Below are positions 20,754-38,066 of a stretch of 64,000 bases of DNA, one piece after another. Position 1 is the stretch's first letter. Each line of letters starts with the position of its first letter. The notes beneath the pieces are model-generated. The model had not been told where the DNA came from. It was given only the letters and a program-made list of their open reading frames with translations, and ran no database searches. Source of the stretch: Sphingobium baderi (GTDB taxonomy: Bacteria; Pseudomonadota; Alphaproteobacteria; Sphingomonadales; Sphingomonadaceae); contig NZ_CP013264.1 of NCBI RefSeq assembly GCF_001456115.1, forward strand, positions 1,506,501 through 1,570,500. Reading direction: 5' to 3'. Position numbers and translations under genes: made by a program.

Positions 20754-23126
20754 ATGAAAACTAAATATAACGTGCTACTTGGATCGGCAAGTCTTGCCTG
20801 CCTGCTTGCGGCCTCACCTGCGCTTGCGCAACAGCCGCAGTCTGCTGCAACGCAAATCGATACCAGCGATGCTGCCGATATTGTCGTCACTGCCAACAAG
20901 CGGCAGGAAAACATCAATAAGGTGGGCCTTAGCATCACCGCCGTCTCAGGCGAAGCGTTGCAGGATCGCAAGGTCACCTCGCTCGAGGATATCGCGAGTG
21001 TGGTTCCCGGCCTTGCCTTCGCATCGAGTACCGCCAATACGCCGATTTTCACGCTGCGCGGCGTGGGCTTCAATGAGAGTTCGCTAGGCGTCTATCCGGC
21101 CGTCAGCGTCTATCTTGATCAAACGCCGCTGCCATTCCCGGTGATGGCCAGCCACACCGCTTTCGACCTCGAGCGGGTCGAAGTTCTCAAGGGGCCGCAG
21201 GGGACGTTGTTCGGCCAGAACAGCACGGGGGGCGCGATCAACTATATCGCGGCCAAGCCCACTAACAGCTTCGAGGCTGGCGGTGACATCAGCTATGGCC
21301 GTTTCAACCAGATCGAGGGTAATGCCTTCGTCAGCGGTCCGATCACGCCGAACCTGCGTTTCCGCCTGGCTGGAACGGCTTTGCATTCGGATGATTGGCA
21401 GAAAAGTTACACGCGCGACGACAAGCTCGGCGAGCAGAATTACTATGCTGGCCGCCTGCTGCTCGACTGGGATCCGACCGACACGATCCGCTTCGCGCTT
21501 AACGTTAATGGGTGGCGGGACAAGTCGGACCCGCAGGCACAGCAACTGGTGCTGAAATTTGGCCAAATCCCCGCCTATGCCTCGCCCGCTCTGCTGAATT
21601 ATCCCTTCCCGCGCGACAACGCCCGCACGGCGGATTGGTCGACGGGCGACCTGCGCCCGCGCGCAGACAGGAAATTCTTTCAAGCGGCGCTGCGCAGCGA
21701 CTTCGACCTGACCGACAATCTGACGCTGACGTCGATCACGTCCTATGACGACTATAAGCAGAATCAGGTAACCGACGGCGACGGTATGAACCTGATCATC
21801 TTCGATCTCGAGAAGAATGATGGGTATATCCGGTCTTTCAACCAGGAACTGCGCCTGGCCAACGACCAGACCGGTACATTCCGCTGGATATTGGGCGCAA
21901 ACTACGAAAAGAGCACGACCTTCGAAAATCAGATCCTGCGCTATATCGACAGCACCAATTACAATCCAAACAATCTGTACATCAATGCGAGCGGGGTCAC
22001 CAACAAACAAAAGATCGAGAATTACGCCTTCTTCGGCAATGCCGAGTACAAGCTGACCGAGGAATTGACGCTCAAAGCCGCAGCCCGCTATACGCAGAGC
22101 CGCAACAATGTGAACATCTGCGGCTATTCGCCTGGCGATGGGCATGTGGCAGACCTGTTCAACCTGCTGGGATCGTTGCTGAGTTCCGTGCCCTTTACGC
22201 CTATCGGGCAGACCGACTGTTATACGCTGAACGAGACCAACACGCCGGGCGAGCCCTATGTACGGACGCTGAAGGAAGACAATGTCTCCTGGCGCGCGGG
22301 CATCGACTATCAGGTGACGCCGCAGACCCTGATTTACGCTAATGCCTCGCGTGGCTATAAGGCGGGTTCGTTCCCGAGCCTGGCTGCGGCGACCTACGCG
22401 GCCCTGGCTCCAGTGACGCAGGAATCGGTTACGGCCTATGAAGCCGGGGTGAAGACGCAATTGTTCGATCGCAAGGTCGGGTTGAACTTCGCTGCTTTCT
22501 ACTATGACTATCGCGACAAGCAGATACGCGGCAAGACCACCGACCCGATCTTTGGCATTCTGGATGTTCTCGTCAATGTTCCCAAGTCCCGCATTCAGGG
22601 CGCCGAGGCAGATCTGACGCTGCGGCCGACAGACGGACTCACTATAACGGCCGCCGGCACCTTCCTGGATTCCAAGGTGCAGCGCTACGACGGCCTCAAC
22701 GTCATCGGTGCGACCGATAATTTCCGGGGGGATCCGCTGCCCTTCACGCCGAAATGGTCCGGTTCGCTTAATGTCGATTACAAGGTTCGCATGCCCAATG
22801 GCGGATCGCCGTTCATCGGCTTCACGGTAACCGGCCGCAGCGCGTCCGACGCGACGCTGGGCGGTCGCCGAATAACCTTCCCGGCTTCGCCCGCCACGAT
22901 CCTGAAGCCGGGTGTTGACTACATCTACAAGATCGATGGCTACGCGACCGTGGATGCACGCGTCGGCTATGTTTCCGACGGCGATCGCTGGCGCGTGAGC
23001 CTGTGGGGCAAGAATATCTTCAATGAATATTACTGGACGAACGTAATTCCCGCCAACGACAGCTCTGCACGCTTCGCGGGACGGCCGGCGACCTACGGCA
23101 TAACGTTTGGCTTCAATTTCAACTGA
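20754..23126 (+). CDS. TonB-dependent outer-membrane receptor
   Basis: The protein is about 790 residues. A signal peptide (KTKYNVLLGSASLACLLAAS, cleaved near ALAQQ) is followed by the plug start ADIVVTANKRQENINKVGLS, the LKGPQGTLFGQNSTGGAINY block, and a barrel ending in YGITFGFNFN. The ATG at 20754 has GGAGGGG 4 bp upstream; an upstream in-frame TTG overlaps that site and is rejected. It is closely similar in layout to the receptor at 35.7 kb (shared DDKLGEQN/DDKLGDRN and NVPKSRIQGAE-type segments), which suggests duplication. It leads the duplicated kinase cassettes and probably imports their substrate. Confidence 0.93.
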   Translation: MKTKYNVLLGSASLACLLAASPALAQQPQSAATQIDTSDAADIVVTANKRQENINKVGLSITAVSGEALQDRKVTSLEDIASVVPGLAFASSTANTPIFTLRGVGFNESSLGVYPAVSVYLDQTPLPFPVMASHTAFDLERVEVLKGPQGTLFGQNSTGGAINYIAAKPTNSFEAGGDISYGRFNQIEGNAFVSGPITPNLRFRLAGTALHSDDWQKSYTRDDKLGEQNYYAGRLLLDWDPTDTIRFALNVNGWRDKSDPQAQQLVLKFGQIPAYASPALLNYPFPRDNARTADWSTGDLRPRADRKFFQAALRSDFDLTDNLTLTSITSYDDYKQNQVTDGDGMNLIIFDLEKNDGYIRSFNQELRLANDQTGTFRWILGANYEKSTTFENQILRYIDSTNYNPNNLYINASGVTNKQKIENYAFFGNAEYKLTEELTLKAAARYTQSRNNVNICGYSPGDGHVADLFNLLGSLLSSVPFTPIGQTDCYTLNETNTPGEPYVRTLKEDNVSWRAGIDYQVTPQTLIYANASRGYKAGSFPSLAAATYAALAPVTQESVTAYEAGVKTQLFDRKVGLNFAAFYYDYRDKQIRGKTTDPIFGILDVLVNVPKSRIQGAEADLTLRPTDGLTITAAGTFLDSKVQRYDGLNVIGATDNFRGDPLPFTPKWSGSLNVDYKVRMPNGGSPFIGFTVTGRSASDATLGGRRITFPASPATILKPGVDYIYKIDGYATVDARVGYVSDGDRWRVSLWGKNIFNEYYWTNVIPANDSSARFAGRPATYGITFGFNFN

Positions 23127-23180: not shown

Positions 23181-24113
23181 ATGATGACCGAACTGACCAC
23201 CGCATATATGACTGAAAACTGCGAACGTCACATACCGAATCCGGCGATCCCGAAGTGGAGCCAAAGCTATTATTTCAATTTCTACGATCGCAAGGCGAAG
23301 CTGGGCGGGTTCATCCGCTTCGGCTTCATGGAGAATATGGCTGAAACCAACGGTTTTGCTATATTCTTCAAAGATGGAAAGCCGCTTTTCACTCGGCTGA
23401 ACATGCACCTCCCTTATACGAGTGATCGTCCCGAGGGCGGAGTGACCGTTGCGGGTGTGCGGCTGGAAGCCGTCCAGCCTCTCCAGGCCTGCCGGATCAC
23501 GATAGACACCGAGGATTTCGGCGTCGACCTCTTGTGGGATCAGCGCTTCGCGATGGGCGATAGCATCGTGCCGAGCGAGGGCAGCGACGATGCGATCGCC
23601 CGCGAGCTGGCCTTTATCCACCTGGAGGGCCCCTGCGACGTGACCGGCACGGTTCGTGTGCGCGGCGGCGATATCATCGAGATCAATGATGCGGGTTTCC
23701 GCGACATCAGTTGCGGTCCGCGTAACTGGGCAGGCGTACAGCATTATCGCCTGGCTTGGCCGATCTTCGACAATGGCATGTCCTGCGTCGCTGTCCATGC
23801 CATCACCGAACATGGCGACAGCTATCAGAAGATCCTGCACGACGGCGAACGCTGGCATCATATCGGCAAGGTCGAGGAAGTTATCGAGTATGAGGCCGAC
23901 GAGATGGGCTTCCGGCATGTCCATTGGAAAGTATGGGACGAGGACGATCGTCTGTGGGAATTTACGGCCCAGCCGCTGTTTCGCTGGCAATTCCCCTTCG
24001 ACACCTTCGTGATGGTCGAACAGATGATGGAATACCGGCTGAGTGACGGGACCATTGGCTACGGGATGGGGGAGAGCGGTTTCCGTTTCCCCTGGGAAGG
24101 CAATGGCAACTGA
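23181..24113 (+). CDS. Uncharacterised protein, lipocalin/CrtC-like family, cassette copy 1
   Basis: A 310-residue soluble protein with no signal peptide or membrane segment, rich in predicted beta strands. Its relative at 25.9 kb has a DHSWGPR motif that I associate with hydroxyneurosporene-synthase (CrtC)/DUF7064-type proteins; here the matching segment (about residues 174-181) reads RDISCGPR, so the histidine and tryptophan are missing. The family has no assigned reaction known to me. The gene is first in cassette 1, and its end lies 1 bp before the kinase start, implying tight coupling. I infer a role in binding or processing the hydrophobic substrate. It could also be an isomerase or hydratase. 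Confidence 0.75.
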   Translation: MMTELTTAYMTENCERHIPNPAIPKWSQSYYFNFYDRKAKLGGFIRFGFMENMAETNGFAIFFKDGKPLFTRLNMHLPYTSDRPEGGVTVAGVRLEAVQPLQACRITIDTEDFGVDLLWDQRFAMGDSIVPSEGSDDAIARELAFIHLEGPCDVTGTVRVRGGDIIEINDAGFRDISCGPRNWAGVQHYRLAWPIFDNGMSCVAVHAITEHGDSYQKILHDGERWHHIGKVEEVIEYEADEMGFRHVHWKVWDEDDRLWEFTAQPLFRWQFPFDTFVMVEQMMEYRLSDGTIGYGMGESGFRFPWEGNGN

Positions 24114-24114
24114 C

Positions 24115-25293
24115 ATGAGCGACATTCTCCACTCGCCCGTCGTGGACGGCATCGACATCTGGAACCGCGACGACATGGAGCCGCGTATCCGGGAGATTCT
24201 CGACCGGACGGTGCGCAATCGCGCGAAAGGCCCCTATGCCGCGAAGACGGATGAAGAAGTGATCGCCATGCTCACACGCTACTTCACGGCCGAGGGACTG
24301 GAGGCGGTCGCCATCTCCGACGTGTTCCGCCTGGCTGGGGGGGCCTCGAAGGAGCAATTTGCTTTCACCTTGCGTCACGGCGAGGATGAGACGGGCGAAC
24401 GCCTTGTCCTGCGCATGGACCCGCTGGAGGCGATCTCGCAGACCTGCCGCGGCCGCGAGGCGCAAATCCACCAGGCATTCGTCGATATATTGCCGGTTGC
24501 GTCAGTACGCAGCGTTGATGCCGACGGAGAGATATTGGGCCAGCCCGCGATCATCCTGGGCTTCGTGCTCGGCGTCACCGAACCCACGCAGGGCACCGGC
24601 CATGGCTTTTCTGGCATCGGAACACGCTATGACGATTGGTCGGCGAAACTGACACCCCAGTTTATCGACGCACTGGCGCAGGTGCACCGCTTCGACTGGC
24701 GGGCGGCTGACCTTTCCTTCTATGCCGCGCCTCAACCCGGCACGCGGCAGGCGGCGATCTGGCAGGTCAACTGGTGGTCACAGGTCTGGTGGGATGGCGT
24801 GGTTCAGCCTGTGGCGTTGCTGACCTACGTCGAACGCTGGCTGCGCGAGAATGCGCCGGTGTGCGAACATCCCGTGATGACACATAGCGATCTGCGGCTG
24901 GGCAATTTCATGTTCGAGGAACCGAGCGGAAAATTCACCGCTGTCCTCGACTGGGAGCTCGCCCACATCGGCGATTTCCATGAAGATATCGCCTGGGCCA
25001 TTCAGCGGCTGTTCGGGACATGGACGGAGGATGGCGACTTCCTTGTCTGCGGCCTCATTCCGCGCGGGGACTTTTTTCGCGCCTATGAGGACGCTTCCGG
25101 CAATCGCATCGATCCGGTGAAGCTGCGCTATTATGAGGTGCTGAACGCTTACAAGTGCGCGGTCATCGACCTCGGCCAAGCGATGCGCGCCGCGACGCAG
25201 AGCAACAACCACCAGGATATTATCCTGACATGGCTCGGCTCGGCCGGGGCTGTCTTCCTCGAGCAACTCGTCACGCTGATCAGGGAGGCTTGA
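24115..25293 (+). CDS. APH-fold phosphotransferase (catabolic kinase type), cassette copy 1
   Basis: About 392 residues with the protein-kinase-like fold of the aminoglycoside/choline phosphotransferase group. The catalytic loop HSDLRLGN has H257 and D259, and the metal-binding LDWELAHIGD follows. A glycine-rich GGASKEQFAF segment near residue 78 precedes the ATP-site lysine region. An extra N-terminal stretch of about 70 residues precedes the fold. Relatives include LvaA and the APH domain of ACAD10/11, which phosphorylate hydroxyacyl-CoAs. The setting (no resistance genes, catabolic cluster) favours that role over drug resistance. I chose the ATG at 24115; an ATG at 24103 overlaps the previous gene. 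Confidence 0.85.
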   Translation: MSDILHSPVVDGIDIWNRDDMEPRIREILDRTVRNRAKGPYAAKTDEEVIAMLTRYFTAEGLEAVAISDVFRLAGGASKEQFAFTLRHGEDETGERLVLRMDPLEAISQTCRGREAQIHQAFVDILPVASVRSVDADGEILGQPAIILGFVLGVTEPTQGTGHGFSGIGTRYDDWSAKLTPQFIDALAQVHRFDWRAADLSFYAAPQPGTRQAAIWQVNWWSQVWWDGVVQPVALLTYVERWLRENAPVCEHPVMTHSDLRLGNFMFEEPSGKFTAVLDWELAHIGDFHEDIAWAIQRLFGTWTEDGDFLVCGLIPRGDFFRAYEDASGNRIDPVKLRYYEVLNAYKCAVIDLGQAMRAATQSNNHQDIILTWLGSAGAVFLEQLVTLIREA

Positions 25294-25296
25294 TCC

Positions 25297-25809
25297 ATGC
25301 TACCCAATATCGACCTGCGCATCGCCAACATGATCAAGGCACTGGAACAGGTGATCCTGCCTGCGTTGCCTCGCGAACAGCGGCAGGCGCGGGATCAGGC
25401 GATGCTGGTGGCCGGTCACCTGGGGATGATAGGCGAGCAGTGGAAATCCGCCCTGCGCTACGAACAGGTGAGCCTCGACGATCTGGCCGGGCTGGCGCGC
25501 CAACTTCTGCCCGATGCTCCTGAATTGCTCGGACCCCGGCTCGAGAACGCGCTGGCTGCTGCGGAGGCGTGTGACCGCGTCAATATCGCTGCGCTCGAAC
25601 AGGCCAATATCGATCTCGGAAACGCCGTCGATGCGGTCATTTTGGGGGGCGAGGATCATGCACCGCTCAGCCAGGCGGCGTCCGATGCGGTGCTCGCTTA
25701 TGGGCTGCGCCACGCACGGCGTGAGCGGACGTGGTTCAAAGCAAATCACCTCGATCCCGATCGGGACGAGCTGCCCGCCATTGCGGAGATTTTCGCAGGG
25801 GCGGACTGA
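25297..25809 (+). CDS. Small helical protein of unknown function, kinase partner candidate, copy 1
   Basis: A 170-residue, largely alpha-helical, alanine- and leucine-rich protein with no signal peptide or membrane helix. It begins LPNIDLRIANMIKALEQVIL and has the segment GHLGMIGEQW near residue 48. It starts 3 bp after the kinase stop. In levulinate catabolism the APH-type kinase LvaA needs the small protein LvaB encoded beside it; by analogy this may be a partner subunit. That is inference from context, as I cannot confirm homology. Its paralogue lies at 27973-28479. Confidence 0.75.
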   Translation: MLPNIDLRIANMIKALEQVILPALPREQRQARDQAMLVAGHLGMIGEQWKSALRYEQVSLDDLAGLARQLLPDAPELLGPRLENALAAAEACDRVNIAALEQANIDLGNAVDAVILGGEDHAPLSQAASDAVLAYGLRHARRERTWFKANHLDPDRDELPAIAEIFAGAD

Positions 25810-25852
25810 CGCCTGCGGCCGGGGAAAATGAAATAAGGAGAGGAACCCAGAG

Positions 25853-26782
25853 ATGCCGGAAATCACGAAAGAATTTGCCGCCTTCCCTGTCGAGCATGCT
25901 TATCGTCACAAGCTGGCGGACGATGGTCGGGAATCGGCGACGCACCAGTTCGTACTGCCGCAATATGGCATCGCCGGCTTCTACTATCCCACTGTACGCG
26001 CCAACGGCCATGCCAAGGGGCGTCTTCACCTGTTCGGCCCCGCCTTCGAGGCGCCGATCGAGGAAGAGGTGGAGCTGATGGTGCCACCGGACATGGACTT
26101 TGACGACTGGCGTTTCGGTCCGCTGCTCATGGCAGTGCGCGAGCCGTTCAAGACGATAGACCTGGGTTGGGTCGGGGACCGTATCCAGTTCGAAGGCCAG
26201 TGGAAGGCGATCCATCCCCCCTATGCGTTCAGTTCGCACCCCAAGGGCAACCCGCCCTACTACGGTGATGATCGCACCGAACAGCATGGCATCATTCAGG
26301 GCAATTTGCGCGTCGATGGGCGCGACTATCCACTCAACGACTTCATGATCCGGGACCATAGCTGGGGGCCGCGTGTCTGGGGGCTCAACCAGCACTACAA
26401 GTGGATTCATGCGACGACGCCGAGCGTGTCAGTCCATTTTTTCGAGATGATGTCCTTCGGCAAGGTTGAGACGCGGGGATATCTCTACAAGGACGGTGTT
26501 ATGCGCCATGTGGCGAGCGTCGATTACGACATCGATTTCGATGCCGATATGATGCACGATCGCCTCCGCGTGACCGTTACGGATACGGACGGGCGATCGG
26601 TCTTCGTCGATTGCAAGGCATTCGCCAAGTATCAGCTGGATCTCGACCCGGTCGTGCTGCTGAACGAGTCCGTCGTCATCGTGACAATTGATGGCGAGGA
26701 AGGCACCGGCTGGTGCGAGTTCTGCTGGAATCGCGACTATCTGAAATTCGCGACACCCTATGTCCAGCGCTTTGCATGGTGA
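25853..26782 (+). CDS. Uncharacterised protein, lipocalin/CrtC-like family, cassette copy 2
   Basis: A 309-residue paralogue of the protein at 23.2 kb, in the same position of the second cassette. It keeps the motif RDHSWGPRVWG near residues 166-176, a motif I associate with CrtC/DUF7064-type proteins. AAGGAGAGG precedes the ATG. The N-terminal third differs from copy 1 (here a PQYGIAGFYYPTVRANG region), so the two copies have diverged, probably in substrate. No catalytic function is assigned to the family as far as I know. Confidence 0.77.
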   Translation: MPEITKEFAAFPVEHAYRHKLADDGRESATHQFVLPQYGIAGFYYPTVRANGHAKGRLHLFGPAFEAPIEEEVELMVPPDMDFDDWRFGPLLMAVREPFKTIDLGWVGDRIQFEGQWKAIHPPYAFSSHPKGNPPYYGDDRTEQHGIIQGNLRVDGRDYPLNDFMIRDHSWGPRVWGLNQHYKWIHATTPSVSVHFFEMMSFGKVETRGYLYKDGVMRHVASVDYDIDFDADMMHDRLRVTVTDTDGRSVFVDCKAFAKYQLDLDPVVLLNESVVIVTIDGEEGTGWCEFCWNRDYLKFATPYVQRFAW

Positions 26783-26796
26783 AGGAGAACGCCACC

Positions 26797-27969
26797 ATGC
26801 GGACGCCGCTCGCAGCCCGCGATGACGTTGATATCTGGGACCGCTCCGAAATGGAGCCGCGGATCCGCCACGTACTGGAACGTACCGTTCGCCTCCGTGA
26901 CACCGGCCCCTATCGGCCGAAATCCGATGTCCAGGTCACGGCCATGCTGGAAGGGTTTTTTGCTGCGAAGAACCTGAGAGGCGTTGCCGTCACCGACGTC
27001 GAGCGCATGTCCGGAGGCGCGTCGAAAGAGCAGTTCGCCTTTACCCTCACGCATCGGGGCGACCGCACAGGTGAGCGACTGGTTCTGCGCATGGACCCGT
27101 TGGAGGCGATCGCCCAGACCTGTCGCGGTCGGGAGGGCGAGATCCAGATGGTCATGGGCGAGCATATGCCGGTGGCATCCGTGCGCTGGTTCGATGCCGA
27201 TGGAGACCTGTTGGGACAGCCTGCGGTGATCCTTGGTTTTGTCGGCGGAGTGACCCAACCCAGCGAGGGCGGTAGCGCCGGCGTGTCGGGCATGGGCGGT
27301 CGGTTGGGCGCGCTCATTGATCGGCTCGCGCCCCAATATGTCGATGCGCTGGCGACGACCCACCGGTTCGACTGGGCAAGCGCAAACCTGCGCTATTTCG
27401 ACGCACCGCGCCCCAACAGTAACCAGGCGGCGATCTGGCAGGTCAACTGGTGGTCGCAGGTATGGTGGGATTGCCTGGTGGAGCCGGTGCCCGTCGTAAC
27501 GCTGGCGGAGCGCTGGCTGCGTGAAAATGCACCCCCGTGCGATTCCCCGATGCTGGTCCATGGCGATCTGCGCATGGGAAACTTCCTGTTCGAGGAGCCG
27601 AGCGGACGGTTCACAGCCGTGCTGGACTGGGAACTGGCTCATATCGGTGACTTTCACGAGGATATCGCCTGGACCATGCAGAAGCTGTTCGGCGCCTGGG
27701 GAGATGACGGTGTCTTTCTGGTCAGTGGTCTGCTGCCGCGCGAAGATTTCATTACCCAGTATGAGGCAGCGTCCGGCAATGTCATCGATCCGACCAGGCT
27801 TCGCTACTACGAGGTACTCAACGCCTACAAATGCGCGGTCATGGACCTGGGACAGGCGATGCGGGCGGCTGCCGCCAGCAATAATCATCAGGAAGTGGTG
27901 CTGACCTGGCTGGGATCGGCTGGCGCTGTCTTCCTTCACCACATCGTCCAGCTGATCAGGAAGGACTGA
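26797..27969 (+). CDS. APH-fold phosphotransferase (catabolic kinase type), cassette copy 2
   Basis: About 390 residues, clearly paralogous to the kinase at 24.1 kb along its whole length (shared DIW-R-EMEPRIR start, GGASKEQFAFTL, QVNWWSQVWWD, VLDWELAHIGDFHEDIAW). The catalytic loop is HGDLRMGN with H255 and D257, so it looks active. I chose the ATG at 26797, with GAAGGAGA upstream; an in-frame ATG at 26776 overlaps the previous gene. The conservation between copies is higher here than in the flanking cassette members, which suggests the kinase step is the constrained one. Confidence 0.86.
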   Translation: MRTPLAARDDVDIWDRSEMEPRIRHVLERTVRLRDTGPYRPKSDVQVTAMLEGFFAAKNLRGVAVTDVERMSGGASKEQFAFTLTHRGDRTGERLVLRMDPLEAIAQTCRGREGEIQMVMGEHMPVASVRWFDADGDLLGQPAVILGFVGGVTQPSEGGSAGVSGMGGRLGALIDRLAPQYVDALATTHRFDWASANLRYFDAPRPNSNQAAIWQVNWWSQVWWDCLVEPVPVVTLAERWLRENAPPCDSPMLVHGDLRMGNFLFEEPSGRFTAVLDWELAHIGDFHEDIAWTMQKLFGAWGDDGVFLVSGLLPREDFITQYEAASGNVIDPTRLRYYEVLNAYKCAVMDLGQAMRAAAASNNHQEVVLTWLGSAGAVFLHHIVQLIRKD

Positions 27970-27972
27970 GCC

Positions 27973-28479
27973 ATGCTGCCAAGCATTGACCTGCGCATTG
28001 CCAACATCGTCAAGTCACTGGAACAAGTGGTCCTGCCGGCGCTCGGCCCGCGCGAACGGCTTGCGAAGGATCAGATCGGCCTTTGTATCGGCCATCTGCG
28101 TATGATTGGCGAGCAATGGCGCTGGGCGGCCGCATTCGAAGGGGGATCGTTCGATGCCATGGTGGCGCTGGCAGAGGCGATGCGGCCCTCGGTCGACCCT
28201 TTTTATGTGGAGGAACTGGGCGCGGCGATCGAGGCGGGGAAGGCGGTCGACAAGCGGGATTTGGCCGCGGTCGAGCATGGTATCCTGGTCCTTGGCGGCC
28301 TGATCGACCGGATTATCCTCGGCGAAGACGGCAAGGTCGAATTGGCGCCCGCCGCACGAGACGCTGTGCTGGCTTATGGTGCGGCACAATCGATACGTGA
28401 GCGAACATGGTTCGCGGCTACCGGCCTGGACCCGGACGGGCAGGATTTGCCCGACATCCCTGCGATGATGGCATCATGA
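27973..28479 (+). CDS. Small helical protein of unknown function, kinase partner candidate, copy 2
   Basis: A 168-residue paralogue of the protein at 25.3 kb: same start (LPSIDLRIANIVKSLEQVVL), same GHLRMIGEQW segment and same RERTWFAATGLDPD-type C-terminal block. It starts 3 bp after the kinase stop, as in copy 1. Its stop overlaps the start of the MmgE/PrpD gene as ATGA, so cassette 2 is translationally coupled to that enzyme. Confidence 0.75.
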   Translation: MLPSIDLRIANIVKSLEQVVLPALGPRERLAKDQIGLCIGHLRMIGEQWRWAAAFEGGSFDAMVALAEAMRPSVDPFYVEELGAAIEAGKAVDKRDLAAVEHGILVLGGLIDRIILGEDGKVELAPAARDAVLAYGAAQSIRERTWFAATGLDPDGQDLPDIPAMMAS

Positions 28480-29903
28480 AGCACGAGAATCCTGTCCTGC
28501 CCGAGCATGATCCCGCCGGACCTTTGGCGAAGATGGTGGCTGAGACACGCTATCAGGACATTCCCGCGCCGGTGATCGATCTTGCCAAGCGTGCGATCCT
28601 CGATACGCTGGCGGTCACTGTGGCGGGTTCCGGTTGGGAAGTCAGCCCCGCCATTGCCGATCAGGTCGCCGAGTGGGGCGGCGCGCCGCAAGCCACCGTC
28701 CTGATACACGGGCACCAGGTACCCGCTCCCATGGCTGCTTTTGGCAATGGCGTAATGGCGCGCGCGATCGATATGGGCGATGTGCATGAAACCGGCGGTC
28801 ATGTGACGGAATGGAATGTGCCCGCCATGCTGTCGGTGCTGGGCATTGCAGACGGGCCGGTCAGCGGAAAGGACTTTGTAACCGCCTATGTCACAGGCGC
28901 TGAAGTCGGCGTGCGCGCCAGCGCAGCGCTGAACCTTGTGCGCTACCACACGACATGGGGCATGCCCGGCGAATGGAACGGGCCGCTCTGCGCGACCGCT
29001 TCGGTGGCGCGTATCCTGGGCCTGGATGCCGACGAAACATGGAATGCGTTAGGTATGGCCTATACCGTCCATGGCATGTCGGAATATAATAAATATTCTG
29101 AAGGTACGCAGATGGCGCGCGTGCAGCACAGCTTTGCCGGGGATACGGCGGTAAAGGCGGTACTGCTGACCCGCCGCGGTGTGACGGCGCCGCGCGGCAT
29201 ATTCCAGGGTGTGCCGAGTGGCATATTGCGACATGTCGCGTGGGACGATGTGCGGCCCGAATTGCTGACCGAGGATCTGGGGACCCGCTGGCAGTTGGCC
29301 GAAGGGCTGTCGATGAAGCCCTATTCCGCGTGCAAATTTACCCACAGCTTCATAGCCAGCACGGTTGCTATCATGCAAGGCGAGGGACTGGACTGGCGCG
29401 ATATCGATCGCATCGACTGCGTCGGCAGTACGGGCGCACGCATGACATTCGAGCCGGCGGCGGTGAAATGGAACCCGCGCTCCGTGCCGGAGGCAATGTT
29501 CAGCGCACCTTATACGATTGCCGCTGCCGCGATGACCGGTGGCTTCTTCCTTGAGGATTTGCACCCCGACCGGATCATGAATGCGGAGCGGCGCGAACTG
29601 ATGCGACGGGTGCATATCGTCGCCGATCCCGATCATGCCGATCAGTTCGAGGGCTTCACGGTCGCAATCACACTCTCCGACGGACGCCGTTTCACCCATG
29701 TCACCCCTTATGTGAAGGGACATACGCGCAATCCGATGACCTGGGACGATTTGGCGGGCAAGCTGCGCCGCTGCGCCCCTTTCGCCGCCGTCCAGCTACC
29801 AGCGGACAACCTGGACATGCTTGTCGGGCTTTGCCGTGACATGGAACGGATCGATGACATGCGTCGCATCGTCGATTGCCTGACCCCCTCTCATCCCGCT
29901 TGA
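28476..29903 (+). CDS. MmgE/PrpD family protein
   Basis: About 475 residues, the normal size. The family includes 2-methylcitrate dehydratase (PrpD) and cis-aconitate decarboxylase, and its members eliminate water or CO2 from small carboxylates. Seen: the N-terminal helical domain with ILDTLAVTVAGSGWE and the region MARAIDMGDVHE where family members have active-site residues. The start at 28476 overlaps the preceding stop (ATGA). Placement after two kinase cassettes suggests it acts on a later intermediate, perhaps removing the activated group. The exact reaction is unknown. Confidence 0.87.
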   Translation: MKHENPVLPEHDPAGPLAKMVAETRYQDIPAPVIDLAKRAILDTLAVTVAGSGWEVSPAIADQVAEWGGAPQATVLIHGHQVPAPMAAFGNGVMARAIDMGDVHETGGHVTEWNVPAMLSVLGIADGPVSGKDFVTAYVTGAEVGVRASAALNLVRYHTTWGMPGEWNGPLCATASVARILGLDADETWNALGMAYTVHGMSEYNKYSEGTQMARVQHSFAGDTAVKAVLLTRRGVTAPRGIFQGVPSGILRHVAWDDVRPELLTEDLGTRWQLAEGLSMKPYSACKFTHSFIASTVAIMQGEGLDWRDIDRIDCVGSTGARMTFEPAAVKWNPRSVPEAMFSAPYTIAAAAMTGGFFLEDLHPDRIMNAERRELMRRVHIVADPDHADQFEGFTVAITLSDGRRFTHVTPYVKGHTRNPMTWDDLAGKLRRCAPFAAVQLPADNLDMLVGLCRDMERIDDMRRIVDCLTPSHPA

Positions 29904-29922
29904 ACCCGACCAGGAGAACATC

Positions 29923-31017
29923 ATGAAAGCAGCCATTCTCAACAGCCTCGATGGCACCTTCCAGATCGAGGAGATCGAGATCGACGCGCCGCGCGGGCGG
30001 GAAGTTCTGGTCGAGGTCAAGGCATCGGGCCTGTGCCATTCGGACCTGCATTTCGCCGAGCAGGATTTCGGTGTCCCGCTGCCCGCCGTGCTGGGGCATG
30101 AACTGGCTGGGATCGTCCTCGCCATCGGTCCGGAGGTGCGGGAATTCGCGGCTGGCGATCATGTCGTGGGGTCGTTGATCCAGTTTTGCGGCCATTGCCG
30201 CGCCTGTATCGGCGGCCGCACCTATCAATGCACCCATCCTGAAGAAACGCTCCGGGATGATCCTGACCATGCGCATCGACTGACTCGGGACGGAGATGGC
30301 GTCACGCAGGTGTTCGGAACCGGGGCCTTCGCCGAGCGGGCGCTGGTGCATGAGAACCAACTGGCTCTGGTACCCAGGGAACTACCCTTTGCGCAGGCAT
30401 CGCTGCTGGGTTGCGGCACCATCACGGGCGCCGGCGCCGCCATCAACACCGCAGCCGTGCGTCCCGGCGATACGGTGGCGGTAATCGGCATCGGCGGTGT
30501 GGGCCTTAACGTCATATCCGGAGCGAAGCTGGCCGGGGCGTCACGGATTGTCGCCATCGACATGCAACCGAAGAAGGAAGAACTGGCGCGTCGCTTCGGT
30601 GCGACCGACTTCATCGATGCATCGGCTGGTGACAGCGTGGAGGCGGTGCGCATGTTGATCGAAGGCGGGGTCGACCATGCGTTTGAGGTGGTCGGCATCA
30701 AGGCCACATCGGAACAGGCGATCAAGATGGCGTGCAAGGGCGGCGGCGCCTATCTGATCGGCGTACATTCGCCGGCGAAGACAATCGATGTCAATGTGAC
30801 GATTGATTTACTGACCAATCAGGTCGATCTGCGCGGCGTGTACATGGGATCATCGAACATCAAGCACGACATCCCCATGTACGCTCAGCTTTACCTACAG
30901 GGAAAGCTCAACCTGGACGATCTCATCTCACGCGAAATCAACATCTCTGAGATCAATGATGCTTACAAGCAACTCAAGGAAGGCGCTATCGCCCGGAGCG
31001 TGATCACATCCTTCTAG
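29923..31017 (+). CDS. Zinc-dependent alcohol dehydrogenase (MDR family)
   Basis: The protein is 364 residues. Catalytic zinc ligands lie in SGLCHSDLHF and the GHE-type LGHELAG segment; the structural zinc has the four-cysteine pattern in CGHCRACIGGRTYQC. The cofactor motif is GIGGVGLN near residue 190. It belongs to the class III-like/MDR alcohol dehydrogenases that oxidise primary or aryl alcohols with NAD. AGGAG precedes the ATG. It closes the rightward unit that starts with the TonB receptor at 20.75 kb. Confidence 0.92.
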   Translation: MKAAILNSLDGTFQIEEIEIDAPRGREVLVEVKASGLCHSDLHFAEQDFGVPLPAVLGHELAGIVLAIGPEVREFAAGDHVVGSLIQFCGHCRACIGGRTYQCTHPEETLRDDPDHAHRLTRDGDGVTQVFGTGAFAERALVHENQLALVPRELPFAQASLLGCGTITGAGAAINTAAVRPGDTVAVIGIGGVGLNVISGAKLAGASRIVAIDMQPKKEELARRFGATDFIDASAGDSVEAVRMLIEGGVDHAFEVVGIKATSEQAIKMACKGGGAYLIGVHSPAKTIDVNVTIDLLTNQVDLRGVYMGSSNIKHDIPMYAQLYLQGKLNLDDLISREINISEINDAYKQLKEGAIARSVITSF

Positions 31018-31054
31018 GATCGCATTGATCTGGCATGTGCCATTGGACTGATAG

Positions 31055-31084
31055 CGAAAGGGGGCGCGGACTGCGCCGCCTTTC
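31055..31084 (+). terminator. Probable transcription terminator hairpin
   Basis: A 12-bp stem with one mismatch (GAAAGGGGGCGC and GCGCCGCCTTTC) around a 5-nt loop lies 38 bp after the alcohol dehydrogenase stop. There is no strong T-run, so efficiency is uncertain. Confidence 0.45.
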
Positions 31085-31197
31085 ACACGAGGTTGCTGGT
31101 CAAGACGGAACGGCTTCCGGCCTAATGGGGAGGCCATGAACACTAAGCACGAAAGCTGATTCTCCAAACCCTGTGACGATTGGCGTCCTGCCGGTAG

Positions 31198-31938
31198 TCA
31201 GATCAACGCGTCGGTGATCCGATTCCGCTCAGCAGCGCTGAAACCATGGTGGGCGAGATAGCCGCTGACCGATCCAAACCGGTCGCCGAGGGTCGCGAAG
31301 AGGCACTCGAGATAGGCGGGCTTGGTGCCAAGTATGACGTCCCTGCACTCGGGCGGAAGGTCGGCATAGAGGTGCAACTTGGCATCGGAAAGCATATTCT
31401 TGAAATGCATGTCGCCGTTGAGCTCGGAACTGCTGCGAACATAGTCGTCGACAATGGTTGCGCGTTGGACGCCCAGGAAATCGAGGAGCAGCGCGGATGC
31501 CGCGCCGGTGCGATCCTTGCCGGCCGAGCAATGGATAAGGATCGGCAAATTTCCATCCGAAATGGCACGGAACATTGCGATGAACTCGGGCGCATATGCA
31601 TCGAGCATCAGACCGTAGAAGGTTGAGAATCCCGCGGCCCAGGCGGCGGCCGTCTTTTCCGATTCTGCGAAGATGCGATTGAAGATGAAGTCGGTGTCGG
31701 ACTTTGGAGATAGATAGTCGCCAGCCGTCCTGAGGACAGCAGGTGTCGGTTGCGCCATCCGCTCACGTTCCGAGCGAAGGTCGATGATGCTTTTCAGACC
31801 CATATGCCGCACCGACTCCAGGTCGCCATCGGTCAGATGAGAGAGTTGGCTTGACCTGTAGACTTTGCCCGTCCGGATGGTGCCGTCCCGCGCAGCGTGG
31901 CCACCTAGATCGCGGAAATTCGGAGCACCTACCAGCAT
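31198..31938 (-). CDS. Tyrosine/dual-specificity-type protein phosphatase
   Basis: About 246 residues with the P-loop phosphatase motif HCSAGKDRTG (C-x5-R) and the N-terminal NFRDLGG block found in bacterial tyrosine phosphatases of the DSP/PTP-like group that also act on phospholipids. I chose the ATG at 31938, 9 bp after AGGAGA; a GTG lies 24 bp upstream. The ribosome-binding site is inside an 11-bp perfect hairpin. It stands alone between two operons and near APH-type kinases; a link with a phosphorylated intermediate is possible but only inferred. Confidence 0.88.
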   Translation of the reverse strand: MLVGAPNFRDLGGHAARDGTIRTGKVYRSSQLSHLTDGDLESVRHMGLKSIIDLRSERERMAQPTPAVLRTAGDYLSPKSDTDFIFNRIFAESEKTAAAWAAGFSTFYGLMLDAYAPEFIAMFRAISDGNLPILIHCSAGKDRTGAASALLLDFLGVQRATIVDDYVRSSSELNGDMHFKNMLSDAKLHLYADLPPECRDVILGTKPAYLECLFATLGDRFGSVSGYLAHHGFSAAERNRITDALI

Positions 31939-31947
31939 CTCATGTTC

Positions 31948-31976
31948 TCTCCTGCAAACCACGATTTTGCAGGAGA
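31948..31976 (-). promoter_or_regulatory. Perfect inverted repeat covering the phosphatase ribosome-binding site
   Basis: Arms TCTCCTGCAAA (31948-31958) and TTTGCAGGAGA (31966-31976) pair perfectly with a 7-nt loop. On the leftward mRNA the AGGAGA Shine-Dalgarno is in the second arm, so the stem would hide it. It could equally be a dimer-regulator operator. Confidence 0.55.
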
Positions 31977-32250
31977 GGCTAGGATATCAACCTTGGTCTT
32001 CCCTAATTCAAATTACGAAAAGCGATTGGAAATTCTGCAGGTTCTGTTGGCTCGTCGCCCGCGCGGATATCGAACGCGAGAAGAATATGGTCCAGCGTTC
32101 CCGTATAGAATGTAAGGCCGGAATACGTGCTGATCGGCCCGCCAGCGTGGACAGGCTGTCCAATGCGTCGATTCGCTGCGGTAGCCCACATTGCCGGAGG
32201 GTTAAGAGCGCGTGTTGCTCGCCCTGCTCTCCCATGCTTTAGAGAACTCT

Positions 32251-32982
32251 ATGAAGATGCGCGAACTTGAGCAACGGACCGGGGTCCATAGGGAGGTGAT
32301 TCGCGTCTATTTGCGAGACGGGTTGATCCCCGAGCCCGCGCGACCTCGCCGGACAATTGCGATCTATGGCGAGGAGCATGTCCAGGCCATCGCGGCTATA
32401 CGCCGCCTTCAGCGAGAAAATCGTCTCACCCTTTCCCAGATTCGTGCGCTTATGGACGGCGAGGCGGCCGAGGCTCGGCTTGATGCCGCGGCATTCGATC
32501 AGCTCGAGCAATTAGTTGATCACCGCACGGGTGGGGATGGGCAACCGGTGCTGATCACCACGCTAGAGCGGGAGTATCCGCAAGCGCTGGAGGATGCCCA
32601 TATCCTTGCCAGGATCGGTATATTGGAGATTATTGAGACATCGGATGGTGAAGCACTTTCCATCTCCGCGGTGCATCTCGTCCGTATCTGGGGCCAGATG
32701 CGCAAGGCCGGCTTCGACCAGCGACTGACTTACTCACCTGATATATTGGGCTTCTACACAAAGGCTGCGGAGTTTGTCGGCAACTGGGAGGCCCAAACGT
32801 TCTTCGAGCGGACGAACGAGCGTGTCACAACGCGCGAAGCGGCGGATCTTATCGAGCAGGCCTTGCCTCTTATGCTCGATTTCTTTGGATTGCTTCGACA
32901 GCGTGCATTTTTCCGGCATCTGGAGAAACTGCATGCGGGCGGCAGCGATCGGCCGCCCGACGAACTCCCGGCTACATCGTGA
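32251..32982 (+). CDS. MerR-family transcriptional regulator
   Basis: About 243 residues with the MerR winged HTH at the N-terminus (MRELEQRTGVHREVIRVYLRDGLIP, then a PRRTIAIYGEEHV wing and the second helix pair). The C-terminal half is helical with no cysteine metal site, so it probably senses an organic ligand. I chose the ATG at 32251; an upstream GTG at 32212 adds 13 residues without HTH homology. The gene is convergent with the alcohol dehydrogenase (11-bp overlap of the 3' ends) and divergent from the phosphatase, which it may regulate. Confidence 0.85.
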   Translation: MKMRELEQRTGVHREVIRVYLRDGLIPEPARPRRTIAIYGEEHVQAIAAIRRLQRENRLTLSQIRALMDGEAAEARLDAAAFDQLEQLVDHRTGGDGQPVLITTLEREYPQALEDAHILARIGILEIIETSDGEALSISAVHLVRIWGQMRKAGFDQRLTYSPDILGFYTKAAEFVGNWEAQTFFERTNERVTTREAADLIEQALPLMLDFFGLLRQRAFFRHLEKLHAGGSDRPPDELPATS

Positions 32983-34072: not shown

Positions 34073-34181
34073 ATGTCTCTCCCATTCAAACTCGGTTCCG
34101 CTATTCAGATTGCGGAGGGTGAATGCTCTGCAGCCGCTGATAAATACCTGATTATACGTATATTTATCTGAGGTGCGGTTA

Positions 34182-34195
34182 AATGGTCCGACCGC
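34182..34195. promoter_or_regulatory. Putative GntR/FadR-type operator, site F
   Basis: AATGGTCCGACC fits AATGGTnnnACC. It lies in the 215-bp divergent region, 110 bp upstream of the alcohol dehydrogenase and 94 bp upstream of the P450. Confidence 0.5.
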
Positions 34196-34287: not shown

Positions 34288-35589
34288 ATGGCCACTACGT
34301 TTGAACCCGACACCCGTCCCATGATTCCGGACGACATCGCCAGGATCGTGGTTTCACCCAAATCCTACACTAATGACGAGGTTGTCTATGGCGCCTTCAA
34401 GTGGCTGCGCGAGAATATGCCGCTCGGCGTAGCCGAAGTACCCGGCTACGATCCGCTTTGGATCGTGACGAAGCACGCGGACATCCGCGAAGTTGAAAAA
34501 AACGCGAAGCTGTTTCACAACGCCGATCACAATCCGGTGCTGAACGACCAGGCCTCCGATGCGTTTACGCGCGAGATCAACAACGGATCACTGCGGATCC
34601 TCTCGTCGCTGACTTATATGGATCCGCCCGAGCATGGCAGCTTCCGCTCCGTGACCTCGAACTGGTTTCTCCCCGGTAAGATCAGCAAGCTCGAGGACCA
34701 GGTGCGGGTTCTTGCACGACAGTCGGTCGAAAATCTGCTGAGCTTCGATGGCGAGTGCGACTTCGTGAAGGATTTTGCGCTGCACTATCCGTTGCGCGTG
34801 ATCATGACGCTGTTCGGCGTTCCCCCCGAAGATGAACCCCGCATGCTGAAGCTGACGCAGGAGTTCTTCGGCGTCCATGATCCTGAGGAACAGCGCCCCG
34901 AAATTGCGGCTGATCCGGTTGTCGGTGCTAAAATGTGGGCTGCGACGCTGGAAGACTTTTACGGATATTTCGACAAGCTCAGCGCGGCGCGCCGGGAGCA
35001 GCCCAACGACGATCTGCTCTCACTGATCGCGAACTCCCGCGTCAATGGCCTGCCGATCCCGCGGGCGGAGGCAAATGGCTATTATGTCGCCATCGCGACC
35101 GCAGGACACGATACGACCTCTTCGTCGACTGCAGGCGGCCTGCACGGCATGCTCCTATATCCCGAGAATTGGGACAAGGTGAAAGCCGACCCGGCGATGA
35201 TACCCAAGCTTGTCGACGAAGCCATTCGCTGGACCGCGCCGGTCAAGCATTTCATGCGTAACGCGACCGAGGATACCGAGCTGCGCGGACAGACTATCCG
35301 CGCGATGGACCGTCTGATGATCTGCTACCCGTCCGGCTGTCGCGACGAGGAAGTGTTCGCAGACGCCGATCGATTCGACATAACGCGATCGCCCAACCAG
35401 CATATCGCCTTCGGTTTTGGTCCCCACATGTGTCTTGGCCAGCATCTCGCCAAGCTCGAGATGAGGGTGCTTTACGAAGAACTGCTTCCGCATCTTAAGT
35501 CTGTCGAACTGGCCGGTGAGCCGCGGCTGGTCGAAACCAACTTCGTGGGCGGTTACAAGAGCTTGCCGATCCGCTTCACCAAAAACTGA
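34288..35589 (+). CDS. Cytochrome P450, CYP108 (P450terp)-like
   Basis: The protein is 433 residues. I-helix motif AGHDTTSSS (about residues 272-280), K-helix EAIRW, and heme loop FGFGPHMCLGQHLAKLEM with cysteine near 382. From memory of P450terp (CYP108A1) the match runs along the whole length, for example DDEV-Y-AFKWLR, LTQEFFGVH, YYVAIATAGHDTTSSS and VETNFVGG. CYP108A1 hydroxylates a methyl group of alpha-terpineol, so a terpenoid or an alkyl-branched cyclic substrate is a fair guess. It needs a ferredoxin; none is adjacent. GGAGAGGG precedes the ATG. Confidence 0.93.
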   Translation: MATTFEPDTRPMIPDDIARIVVSPKSYTNDEVVYGAFKWLRENMPLGVAEVPGYDPLWIVTKHADIREVEKNAKLFHNADHNPVLNDQASDAFTREINNGSLRILSSLTYMDPPEHGSFRSVTSNWFLPGKISKLEDQVRVLARQSVENLLSFDGECDFVKDFALHYPLRVIMTLFGVPPEDEPRMLKLTQEFFGVHDPEEQRPEIAADPVVGAKMWAATLEDFYGYFDKLSAARREQPNDDLLSLIANSRVNGLPIPRAEANGYYVAIATAGHDTTSSSTAGGLHGMLLYPENWDKVKADPAMIPKLVDEAIRWTAPVKHFMRNATEDTELRGQTIRAMDRLMICYPSGCRDEEVFADADRFDITRSPNQHIAFGFGPHMCLGQHLAKLEMRVLYEELLPHLKSVELAGEPRLVETNFVGGYKSLPIRFTKN

Positions 35590-35708: not shown

Positions 35709-38066
35709 ATGAGAGGAAGGAATCTATTTGTTGCCGGCTGTTCCATATTTGCGATGCAATCGCCGGCGATTGCCCAGACCGCGAGCGCAGAGCCGCAAGC
35801 GGAATCCGGAATCGGCGACATTATCGTGACCGCGCAGAAGCGAGAACAGGCGCTCAATGATGTCCCGCTGTCTATTACGGCGGCTTCAGGCGAGAAATTG
35901 CAGGACCAGGGTATCACCGACGTTGCCGATCTTGGGAAGATCGTGCCGGGTTTCAACTATACCGAGAGCGCCTTTGCGACGCCGGTTTACACCCTTCGTG
36001 GTATCGGCTTCTACGATACTTCGCTCGCCGCCAAGCCTACGGTCAGCATTTACCAGGATCAGGTCGCGATACCCTTTTCAATCATGACGCGCGGCGCGAC
36101 GCTCGATCTGGAGCGCGTCGAGGTGCTCAAGGGACCGCAAGGCACGCTTTTCGGGTCAAATGCGACCGGTGGCGCGATCAACTATATCGCAGCCAAGCCA
36201 ACGACGACTTTTAAGGCTGGCCTCGACGCGAGTATCGCCCGCTTTGGCGAGGTGACAGCCGGCGGTTTCGTGAGCGGCCCGATCAGCGACACTATCTCCG
36301 CGCGCGTGGCCGTCCGCACCGAGCAGGGCGGTGCATGGCAGCGCAGTTACACACGCGATGACAAGCTTGGCGATCGGAATTTCACGACCGGCCGTCTGCT
36401 CGTCGACTTCGAGCCTTCCGACGCGTTGCGCTTCGAGCTCAACCTCAATGGCTTCATCGACAAAAGTGATGGGCAGGCAGCCCAGCTCATAGGCGTGGTG
36501 CCGCTGGGCAACCCGGCGCGCGCGGGAGAGTTTTACAGCTACCCGATCGCGCCTCTCAATAACCGGGCGGCCGACTGGACACCGGGCCAGGATCCCAAAC
36601 GCGACGATTGGTATTATCAGGCGTCCTTGCGTGGCGATCTCGATCTCAGCGACGACATCACTCTGACCTCGATCACAAGCTGGTCGAAATACGACATCGA
36701 CGCGGATATCGATCCGGACGGCGTTGCCCTCCAGGGCTATTTCTACAACACGACCGGCCGTATCACCGCGCTTTCGCAAGAGCTTCGTCTGGGCGGGAAG
36801 ACCGGCGACCTGAGCTGGATCATCGGTGGCAACTATTCTCGCGAAAAGACCTATCAGCATGACGAAGCAGCGTACCCCGATTCAACCTCGGCGTACCAGT
36901 TGGTCGATGCCGGCGTGGGCGTTCCGTTCTTTCGTTACTACCAATATTCCCAGCAGAAGTTCGTGAACAAAGCTGTTTTCGCCAATCTCGACTATGACAT
37001 CGGCGAATTCTTCACGCTGCATGGCGGCATCCGTTACACGAAGATCAATATCGACTTCGCGGGATGCACGGCCGATCGTGGTGACGCGCTGGGCGTGGGA
37101 ATAGAAAATCTGCTGAACTTCATCAGGGGTGGCGCGGGTCTCAGCCCAATTGACATTCAACCTGACGCTTGCGTTACTATCGATGCTGCAACCTTGACTG
37201 CTGGTGAAGTTCGTCGATCGCTCGATGAAGACAATGTGTCCTGGCGGGCTGGTCTGGATTTCAAGCCGAACAGGGACATCCTGCTCTACGCGTCGGTCAG
37301 CAAAGGATACAAGTCGGGCAGTTTCCCGTTGCTCTCGGCGAGCGACGCCAACCAGTTCAATCCGGTCACTCAGGAATCGGTCACCGCCTACGAGTTGGGC
37401 GCAAAGCTGACGTTGCTCGATCGTACCGCGCAAATCAATGGGGCTGTTTTCTATTACGATTATAGCGACAAACAGTTGAAGGGTCGGGTCGTTGCAAATC
37501 CCGACATTTTCGGTCCGCTTGAGGCGCTCGTCAACGTTCCCAAGTCACGTGTGCAGGGCGCCGAAATCCAACTCGATCTCGCGCCAACCGATGGCCTACG
37601 CTTTAGCATCGGCGGGACCTACCTCGACACCAAGATCAAGGGGAGCTTCGTCAACTATGACAGCTACGGGAACCAGGCCGATTTCGGCGGTTCTGCTTTC
37701 CCCTACACACCGAAGTACCAGATCGTCATAGACGGCCAGTATGATTGGGCTCTGAGTGATAATGTCGGCGCATTCATTGGCGCAAACATGAGTTTCCAGA
37801 GCGACACCAAGGCGGTTCTCGGCGATGCGAGGCAGACGCCCTCGCCGACGCTCACCGCGCAAGGCGGCCTGACGATCGCAGACTATACGCTGATCGATTT
37901 GCGTGCGGGTATCAACCTTGACGACAAACGCTACAAGATCAGCGCGTTCGTGCGAAACCTGACGAACGAGTATTACTGGTCGAACGCAACAAGGATCACC
38001 GACACGACCGTCAGGTTCGCCGGACGGCCGCGCACTTTCGGAGTCAGCCTCTCGGCCCGCTTATAG
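35709..38066 (+). CDS. TonB-dependent outer-membrane receptor
   Basis: About 785 residues. Signal peptide (RGRNLFVAGCSIFAMQSPA, cleaved near AIAQT), plug start DIIVTAQKREQALNDVPLS, the LKGPQGTLFGSNATGGAINY block, and a barrel ending GVSLSARL. I chose the ATG at 35709; the earlier TTG at 35691 overlaps the GAGGGAGG ribosome-binding site. It closely parallels the receptor at 20.75 kb and lies downstream of the P450 in the same direction, so it probably imports that enzyme's substrate. A strong terminator follows. Confidence 0.93.
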   Translation: MRGRNLFVAGCSIFAMQSPAIAQTASAEPQAESGIGDIIVTAQKREQALNDVPLSITAASGEKLQDQGITDVADLGKIVPGFNYTESAFATPVYTLRGIGFYDTSLAAKPTVSIYQDQVAIPFSIMTRGATLDLERVEVLKGPQGTLFGSNATGGAINYIAAKPTTTFKAGLDASIARFGEVTAGGFVSGPISDTISARVAVRTEQGGAWQRSYTRDDKLGDRNFTTGRLLVDFEPSDALRFELNLNGFIDKSDGQAAQLIGVVPLGNPARAGEFYSYPIAPLNNRAADWTPGQDPKRDDWYYQASLRGDLDLSDDITLTSITSWSKYDIDADIDPDGVALQGYFYNTTGRITALSQELRLGGKTGDLSWIIGGNYSREKTYQHDEAAYPDSTSAYQLVDAGVGVPFFRYYQYSQQKFVNKAVFANLDYDIGEFFTLHGGIRYTKINIDFAGCTADRGDALGVGIENLLNFIRGGAGLSPIDIQPDACVTIDAATLTAGEVRRSLDEDNVSWRAGLDFKPNRDILLYASVSKGYKSGSFPLLSASDANQFNPVTQESVTAYELGAKLTLLDRTAQINGAVFYYDYSDKQLKGRVVANPDIFGPLEALVNVPKSRVQGAEIQLDLAPTDGLRFSIGGTYLDTKIKGSFVNYDSYGNQADFGGSAFPYTPKYQIVIDGQYDWALSDNVGAFIGANMSFQSDTKAVLGDARQTPSPTLTAQGGLTIADYTLIDLRAGINLDDKRYKISAFVRNLTNEYYWSNATRITDTTVRFAGRPRTFGVSLSARL

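What the first reader, a model, noticed from the sequence alone, without database searches (positions are those of the whole stretch)
23181..28479. Tandem duplication of a three-gene kinase cassette of unknown pathway
Seen: two consecutive sets of three genes in the same order and spacing (CrtC/lipocalin-like protein 310/309 aa, APH-fold kinase 392/390 aa, small helical protein 170/168 aa), each member clearly paralogous to its counterpart. They sit between a TonB receptor and an MmgE/PrpD gene coupled by ATGA. Known: the APH-type kinase LvaA acts on 4-hydroxyacyl-CoA and needs the small neighbour LvaB. Inference: this is a phosphorylation-based degradation route in which each cassette handles a different stereoisomer, ring or side chain, with the kinase making a leaving group for a later elimination. 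The beta-rich protein may bind the substrate. I know of no described pathway with this triad duplicated.
Basis: partly seen in the sequence, partly recalled or inferred. Interest (0 to 1): 0.82.

Follow-up and report, generated by a model that had tools for sequence, protein, structure and literature searches.

The report
Kinase–lyase cassette removing tertiary hydroxyls
Two neighbouring gene sets in a Sphingobium look like an ATP-powered machine that phosphorylates a stubborn hydroxyl group on a terpene-like molecule and then expels the phosphate to leave a double bond, so that the compound can be eaten.

The parts
20754..23126 (+). TonB-dependent receptor (TonB1) directly upstream of the cassettes; uptake role inferred
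   Evidence: PF00593 and PF07715; start codon
23181..24113 (+). DUF1: DUF7065+DUF7064 protein, 310 aa, putative phosphate lyase, subfamily 1
   Evidence: Pfam above cut-off; motif RDISCGPR with the invariant Asp; the profile of this subfamily alone does not reach 25-PSL
24115..25293 (+). K1: APH-fold kinase, 392 aa, motif HSDLRLGN
   Evidence: PF01636 6e-21; 66% to K2; motif
25297..25809 (+). S1: small partner, 170 aa
   Evidence: no Pfam or NCBIfam family; 47% to S2; 4 bp after K1
25853..26782 (+). DUF2: DUF7065+DUF7064 protein, 309 aa, putative phosphate lyase, subfamily 2; Asp168 in RDHSWGPR
   Evidence: AF2 model best matches 25-PSL; profiles reach 25-PSL
26797..27969 (+). K2: APH-fold kinase, 390 aa, motif HGDLRMGN
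   Evidence: PF01636 1e-24; best PDB sequence hit 3ats/3att, 3att being Rv3168
27973..28479 (+). S2: small all-helical partner, 168 aa
   Evidence: AF2 pLDDT 88, helical; no PDB fold with E <= 0.001
28476..29903 (+). MmgE/PrpD family protein, overlaps S2 by ATGA
   Evidence: PF03972 and PF19305; also in L020-L028 and L086
29923..31017 (+). Zn-dependent alcohol dehydrogenase (ADH1)
   Evidence: also in L020-L028 and L086
31198..31962 (-). Y_phosphatase3 phosphatase, recurrent optional companion
   Evidence: PF13350; 62% to the L086 copy; near-S enrichment 3 of 22 genes, 0.135 expected
32212..32982 (+). MerR-type regulator
   Evidence: PF13411
32972..34072 (-). second Zn-dependent alcohol dehydrogenase (ADH2)
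34288..35589 (+). Cytochrome P450, CYP108-like, 57.7% identical to P450terp
35709..38066 (+). TonB-dependent receptor (TonB2); uptake role inferred
   Evidence: 76-79% identical to the annotated TonB-dependent receptors of L107 and L108
38134..39642 (+). Aldehyde dehydrogenase
   Evidence: PF00171

Best explanation
Each cassette is an ATP-dependent dehydration module for a tertiary alcohol. The APH-fold kinase, with its small helical partner, phosphorylates a hydroxyl that cannot be removed by ordinary oxidation (inferred from relatives). The CrtC-fold DUF7065/DUF7064 protein then expels phosphate, probably with the Asp of its RDxSxGxR motif, leaving an alkene (inferred from 25-phosphosteroid lyase). 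The P450terp-like P450, alcohol dehydrogenases and aldehyde dehydrogenase would oxidise a methyl group of the same or a related molecule to a carboxylate. The likely substrate is a p-menthane-type tertiary alcohol such as alpha-terpineol (inferred). Two lyases of different subfamilies with two kinase/partner pairs suggest two different tertiary alcohols or isomers (speculative). Shown: homology, fold match, Asp conservation, gene linkage, phylogeny. Inferred: both chemical steps, the substrate, the role of the small protein.
Against: No activity is shown. The DUF2 model is moderate (pLDDT 70) and poor at residues 172-179 beside the motif. The DUF1 subfamily profile alone does not find 25-PSL. 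The fold is shared with hydratases and pericyclases, and whether the Asp is special to lyases was not tested. P450s 76-82% identical occur in three plasmid regions without a K, S or DUF match, so the P450 link is not obligatory; for 15 of 50 S genes no lyase-like gene is near, some of them at contig ends. The S. denitrificans kinase gene has no lyase candidate beside it. PF23212 matched only 1 of 299 genomes of the phylum.
Confidence: 0.6

Rival explanations
1. Transient phosphate handle: the kinase tags a hydroxyl so that the compound is held for oxidation, and a phosphatase (Y_phosphatase3) later removes the tag; the DUF protein only binds or presents the substrate.
For: A Y_phosphatase3 gene lies at 31198-31962 and in some other clusters (L068, L070; L086, L090); 3 of 22 such genes in 15 genomes lie within 5 kb of an S gene against 0.135 expected. 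Kinase-first catabolism is known for hydroxyphenylethanones, with an unrelated kinase (abstract); the cresol system CreHI-CreD is recalled.
Against: No match to the phosphatase in most K-S loci read: 2 of the 28 loci L058-L085; none in L021-L026 and L028 (loci partly cut). It does not explain the match of the DUF protein to a phosphate lyase.
Confidence: 0.13
2. LvaA/ACAD10/11-type route: the kinase with an LvaB-like partner phosphorylates a 4-hydroxyacyl-CoA and an acyl-CoA dehydrogenase-type enzyme eliminates phosphate.
For: The kinases share the APH fold with ACAD11 (E about 1e-8); LvaB is a 12-kDa protein that interacts with LvaA (passages), a precedent for S; some other K-S loci contain acyl-CoA dehydrogenase-like genes.
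Against: No acyl-CoA dehydrogenase or CoA ligase was recognised among the genes scanned at 23181-39642; S shows no match to DUF6285 and the genome has no DUF6285 gene at E <= 0.01; motif D-x-R-x-G-N instead of D-x-x-L-D/N-N.
Confidence: 0.1
3. The DUF protein is a cofactor-free hydratase, isomerase or cyclase of the CrtC type that acts independently of the kinase on a terpenoid.
For: The fold is shared with kievitone hydratase, CghA, Fsa2 and AttH. A 2025 paper is titled on regioselective hydration of terpenes by carotenoid 1,2-hydratase (search listing and start of abstract).
Against: Sequence similarity in the PDB is to 25-PSL, AttH coming only at 0.42, and the kinase is a frequent operon partner.
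Confidence: 0.12
4. Aminoglycoside or macrolide resistance kinases.
For: APH fold and weak NCBIfam matches.
Against: The resistance models listed score far below their cut-offs (best 38 against 205 bits); the context is catabolic.
Confidence: 0.02

Closest known systems
25-hydroxysteroid kinase and 25-phosphosteroid lyase of Sterolibacterium denitrificans (PMC8449060, abstract and passages; PDB 9fzn, 9g2i, 9g4c)
   Same: ATP-dependent dehydration by a phosphotransferase-type kinase and a separate lyase; lyase fold, sequence and Asp shared with DUF7065/DUF7064
   Different: There the substrate is a steroid side chain and no lyase candidate lies beside the kinase gene; here the genes form one operon-like run with a third small protein, near a P450, with two lyase subfamilies. 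That the PDB lyase comes from this organism is inferred from its name
Rv3168-Rv3169 operon of Mycobacterium tuberculosis (PMC5340868, passages)
   Same: Adjacent kinase and Rv3169-family protein; Rv3168 is the closest PDB kinase by sequence
   Different: Function unknown to me; the NCBIfam Rv3169_fam match is below its cut-off (45-48 against 150 bits); a small S gene was not looked for there
LvaA-LvaB-LvaC and ACAD10/ACAD11 (PMC12440821, PMC6692424, passages)
   Same: Kinase makes a phosphate leaving group; LvaB is a small partner
   Different: CoA esters, elimination by an acyl-CoA dehydrogenase fold, other kinase motif, small partner of about 12 kDa against 168-170 aa here
P450terp, CYP108A1 (PDB 1cpt, 8euh)
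   Same: 57.7% identity of the window P450
   Different: Whether the characterised terp operon holds a kinase-lyase module was not seen here

Membership tests
Kinase plus phosphate lyase (25-HSK/25-PSL type) | Lyase homologous to 25-PSL in sequence | tested here: met
   Mixed family profile E 1.8e-10, DUF2 subfamily E 1.3e-4; DUF1 subfamily alone none at E <= 1, single DUF2 sequence none at E <= 1
Kinase plus phosphate lyase (25-HSK/25-PSL type) | Lyase fold | tested here: met
Kinase plus phosphate lyase (25-HSK/25-PSL type) | Catalytic Asp of the RDxSxGxR motif (role inferred from the Asn in 9g4c) | tested here: met
   43 of 43 full-length rows, both window copies included
Kinase plus phosphate lyase (25-HSK/25-PSL type) | APH-fold kinase with intact catalytic loop | tested here: met
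   PF01636, HSDLRLGN and HGDLRMGN
Kinase plus phosphate lyase (25-HSK/25-PSL type) | Kinase specifically related to 25-HSK | tested here: inconclusive
   9fsg matched at 2.5e-8 but is not named as 25-HSK
Kinase plus phosphate lyase (25-HSK/25-PSL type) | Phosphorylation of a tertiary alcohol and phosphate elimination | not testable with these tools
   Needs an enzyme assay
LvaAB/ACAD10/11 | Small partner of the DUF6285 kind (the finding's suggestion; that LvaB is DUF6285 was not checked) | tested here: not met
   hhalign probability 1.2%; no Pfam hit
LvaAB/ACAD10/11 | Acyl-CoA dehydrogenase-type elimination partner in the gene cluster | tested here: not met
   None among the genes scanned at 23181-39642
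Pfam DUF7065/DUF7064 | Score above curated cut-off | tested here: met
   Both proteins, both models
Aminoglycoside or macrolide phosphotransferases | NCBIfam cut-offs | tested here: not met
   38 of 205 bits at best for APH(3')
CYP108 | More than 40% identity to a family member (rule recalled) | tested here: met
   57.7% (244 of 423 aligned residues) to P450terp

The most novel reading that the evidence does not exclude
DUF7065/DUF7064 proteins are a family of phosphate lyases that work with dedicated APH-fold kinases and a previously undescribed small helical subunit. Together they form a mobile, ATP-driven 'tertiary-alcohol remover' that bacteria of two phyla plug into terpenoid pathways; the Sphingobium version is a composite with two lyase subfamilies for two different tertiary hydroxyls. 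The same logic may explain the mycobacterial Rv3168-Rv3169 operon.
Probability: 0.4. Interest if true: 0.85.

Novelty: new variant of a known kind. Interest (0 to 1): 0.77.

Why it matters
Tertiary alcohols block ordinary oxidation. A kinase-lyase solution has been described for anaerobic sterol degradation, where the lyase was still called putative in the 2024 paper seen here (passages). Finding lyase-like and kinase genes side by side in sphingomonads and Rhodococcus would give a function to two Pfam domains of unknown function, add a new subunit, offer enzymes for terpene chemistry, and suggest a function for a conserved mycobacterial operon.

Tried and rejected
Whole-triad tandem duplication: rejected for the lyase-like genes. 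The origin of the composite is unresolved: either the K-S pair was copied next to a second lyase gene, or two cassettes met and their K-S pairs stayed or became alike. The K tree joins the L060/L063 kinases only weakly with K2 (84/60), so it does not decide.

DUF6285 identity of the small protein: no support. Fold of the small protein: no PDB match with E <= 0.001; not listed is not the same as a new fold. Defence role: no PADLOC match with E <= 0.01 for DUF2, K2 and S2. A survey of DUF7064 in the phylum found only the window's own genome (1 of 299), so generality outside the family rests on three actinobacterial plasmid regions (Pfam) and one genome of another family of the class (G169, L058). 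Literature: no held paper contains DUF7064, DUF7065, PF23212 or PF23213; '25-phosphosteroid lyase' occurs in two held papers, of 2021 and 2024; the rows listed by the searches show no paper on a kinase-lyase module for terpenoids.

Rows dropped: L027 and L071 were left out of trees and counts as near copies of the window and of L021; 5 of the 43 S genes of the genome searches (four of G532, one of G761) were not put into the neighbourhood count, and two more (G683) are the dropped L071. G532 was not in the phosphatase search.

A slip: alignment A4 held one 23-residue row read in a wrong frame from L071. It fed the profile and the family model used to list lyase-like genes. The PDB search was repeated without it: E 1.8e-10 instead of 1.6e-10, and the third hit changed to AttH at 0.42. 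The listing was not repeated.
Full report
The observation. The window lies on contig 1 of a 4.58 Mb genome. Proteins of Sphingobium sp. TCM1 locus L027 are 98-100% identical to the window's, so the organism is a Sphingobium (inferred). At 23181-28479 six genes run in the order DUF1-K1-S1-DUF2-K2-S2, followed by an MmgE/PrpD gene that overlaps S2 by ATGA and by a zinc alcohol dehydrogenase. K1 and K2 are APH-fold kinases; S1 and S2 have no Pfam family; the beta-rich proteins carry Pfam DUF7065 and DUF7064.

It is not a triad duplication. K1/K2 are 65-66% and S1/S2 47% identical, but DUF1/DUF2 only 28%. Orthologue identities of the lyase-like genes and the kinases are alike (DUF 84-98%, K 83-99%, five loci), so the lyase-like genes are not simply faster. 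In the tree of 37 rows DUF1 groups with proteins of G470, G583 and G169, and DUF2 with proteins of G532 and G583. Holding the 16 cassette rows together costs 366 log-likelihood units (AU p 0.000145), while the same test does not reject one clade for kinases (p 0.313) or small proteins (p 0.63). The two lyase-like genes are therefore of old, separate descent, and only the kinase/small pair is a close duplicate. The Novosphingobium rosa locus (L026) shows the second cassette alone, and Novosphingobium sp. B1 (L028) an intact first and a decayed second cassette, so one cassette can apparently suffice.

How common it is. The small-protein profile matched 2 of 385 genomes of the class and 15 of 397 of the family, in 11 of 96 genera, the window's own genome included; three genomes hold six to eight copies. 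Of 50 small genes examined in context, 47 lie directly next to a kinase gene and 35 have a lyase-like gene within 2.5 kb on the same strand; of the three without an adjacent kinase, two (L064, L084) lie at contig ends. In the plasmid collection, matches to DUF2 were found in 7 records and to S2 in 6. Two Rhodococcus plasmids carry a hypothetical protein, a phosphotransferase, a hypothetical protein and a second phosphotransferase in a row; the first protein matches both DUF7064 and DUF7065 above cut-off in both plasmids, and the third is the S match. In R. ruber the kinase is 45% and the small protein 37% identical to the window's, and a divergent run holds a P450 52% identical to the window's P450, with 2Fe-2S protein, FAD oxidoreductase, aldehyde and alcohol dehydrogenases.

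What the module does. In Sterolibacterium denitrificans a kinase phosphorylates the tertiary C25 hydroxyl of steroids and a separate lyase expels phosphate; in 2021 the lyase gene was unknown, with no candidate near the kinase gene (abstract and passages, PMC8449060), and in 2024 the lyase was still called putative (passages, PMC11061730). The PDB copy used here holds a 25-PSL. The kinase, small and lyase-like genes of the window suggest the same logic in one gene run. The kinase motif H[GS]D-x-R-x-G-N resembles that of 3ats (the Rv3168 sequence) and of 9fsg, and differs from ACAD11, 3dxp and 9o56. Rv3168 and Rv3169 are one operon (passages, PMC5340868); the kinase's best PDB match and the DUF proteins' only shared NCBIfam match both point to this pair, although the NCBIfam score is below cut-off.

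Likely substrate. The P450 at 34288-35589 is 57.7% identical to P450terp, which hydroxylates alpha-terpineol to 7-hydroxyterpineol (passage, PMC7794910); CYP108N14 of Rhodococcus globerulus also acts on alpha-terpineol and 4-terpineol (passage, PMC11279926). Both have a tertiary hydroxyl (recalled chemistry). The N. rosa locus has lyase, kinase, small protein, MmgE, alcohol dehydrogenase, MerR, P450 and TonB receptors within 15 kb, with an aldehyde-dehydrogenase-like ORF between (by eye). Against this, close P450 relatives in Croceibacterium, Croceicoccus and Novosphingobium sp. KACC 22771 show no K, S or DUF match in the 25-31 kb read; the first two have next to it another module that the window also has at 5.8-14 kb, the third parts of it. 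I read the cassette as a feeder that lets such a pathway accept a tertiary alcohol (inference).

Phosphatase. A Y_phosphatase3 gene lies in the window, in the Sphingomonas sp. MM-1 plasmid cluster (62% identical) and in Sphingopyxis macrogoltabida. In 15 genomes, 3 of 22 such genes lie within 5 kb of a small gene against 0.135 expected, Poisson P 0.0004. The 15 genomes were chosen because they hold the small gene, and the window's own case, seen beforehand, is one of the three. The phosphatase may repair wrongly phosphorylated alcohols (25-HSK also phosphorylates a primary alcohol), or be part of a tag-and-release rival.

Verdict. New variant of a known kind.

Noticed in passing
window 47671-52733 (+): Conjugation genes: a TraD/TrwB-type coupling protein and a TrwC relaxase with helicase lie 8-13 kb beyond the aldehyde dehydrogenase gene, so the cluster may sit in or beside a mobile element.
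   Followed up: no
window 5863-14060: LysR, aldehyde dehydrogenase, MFS, VanB-like reductase and LigXa-type Rieske oxygenase genes are 69-87% identical to a module on Croceibacterium and Croceicoccus plasmids that also holds a P450terp-like P450 and a MerR gene.
   Followed up: partly
L012 9601-11327 (G000 C1 about 187.6-189.3 kb): A third kinase/small-protein pair (kinase about 40% identical) in the same genome, without a DUF7064 gene nearby, beside a luciferase-like oxidoreductase and acyl-CoA dehydrogenase-like genes (the last two by eye).
   Followed up: partly
   Followed up: partly
L074 7348-10977; L090 9953-13482; L086 11742-14927: Other clusters also hold two DUF7064 genes around or beside one kinase/small pair, in L074 of different subfamilies: two lyases per kinase may be a rule with a meaning.
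   Followed up: partly
L087 12649-13737; L088 12647-13732: Rhodococcus cassettes add a second, very different phosphotransferase behind the small gene.
   Followed up: no
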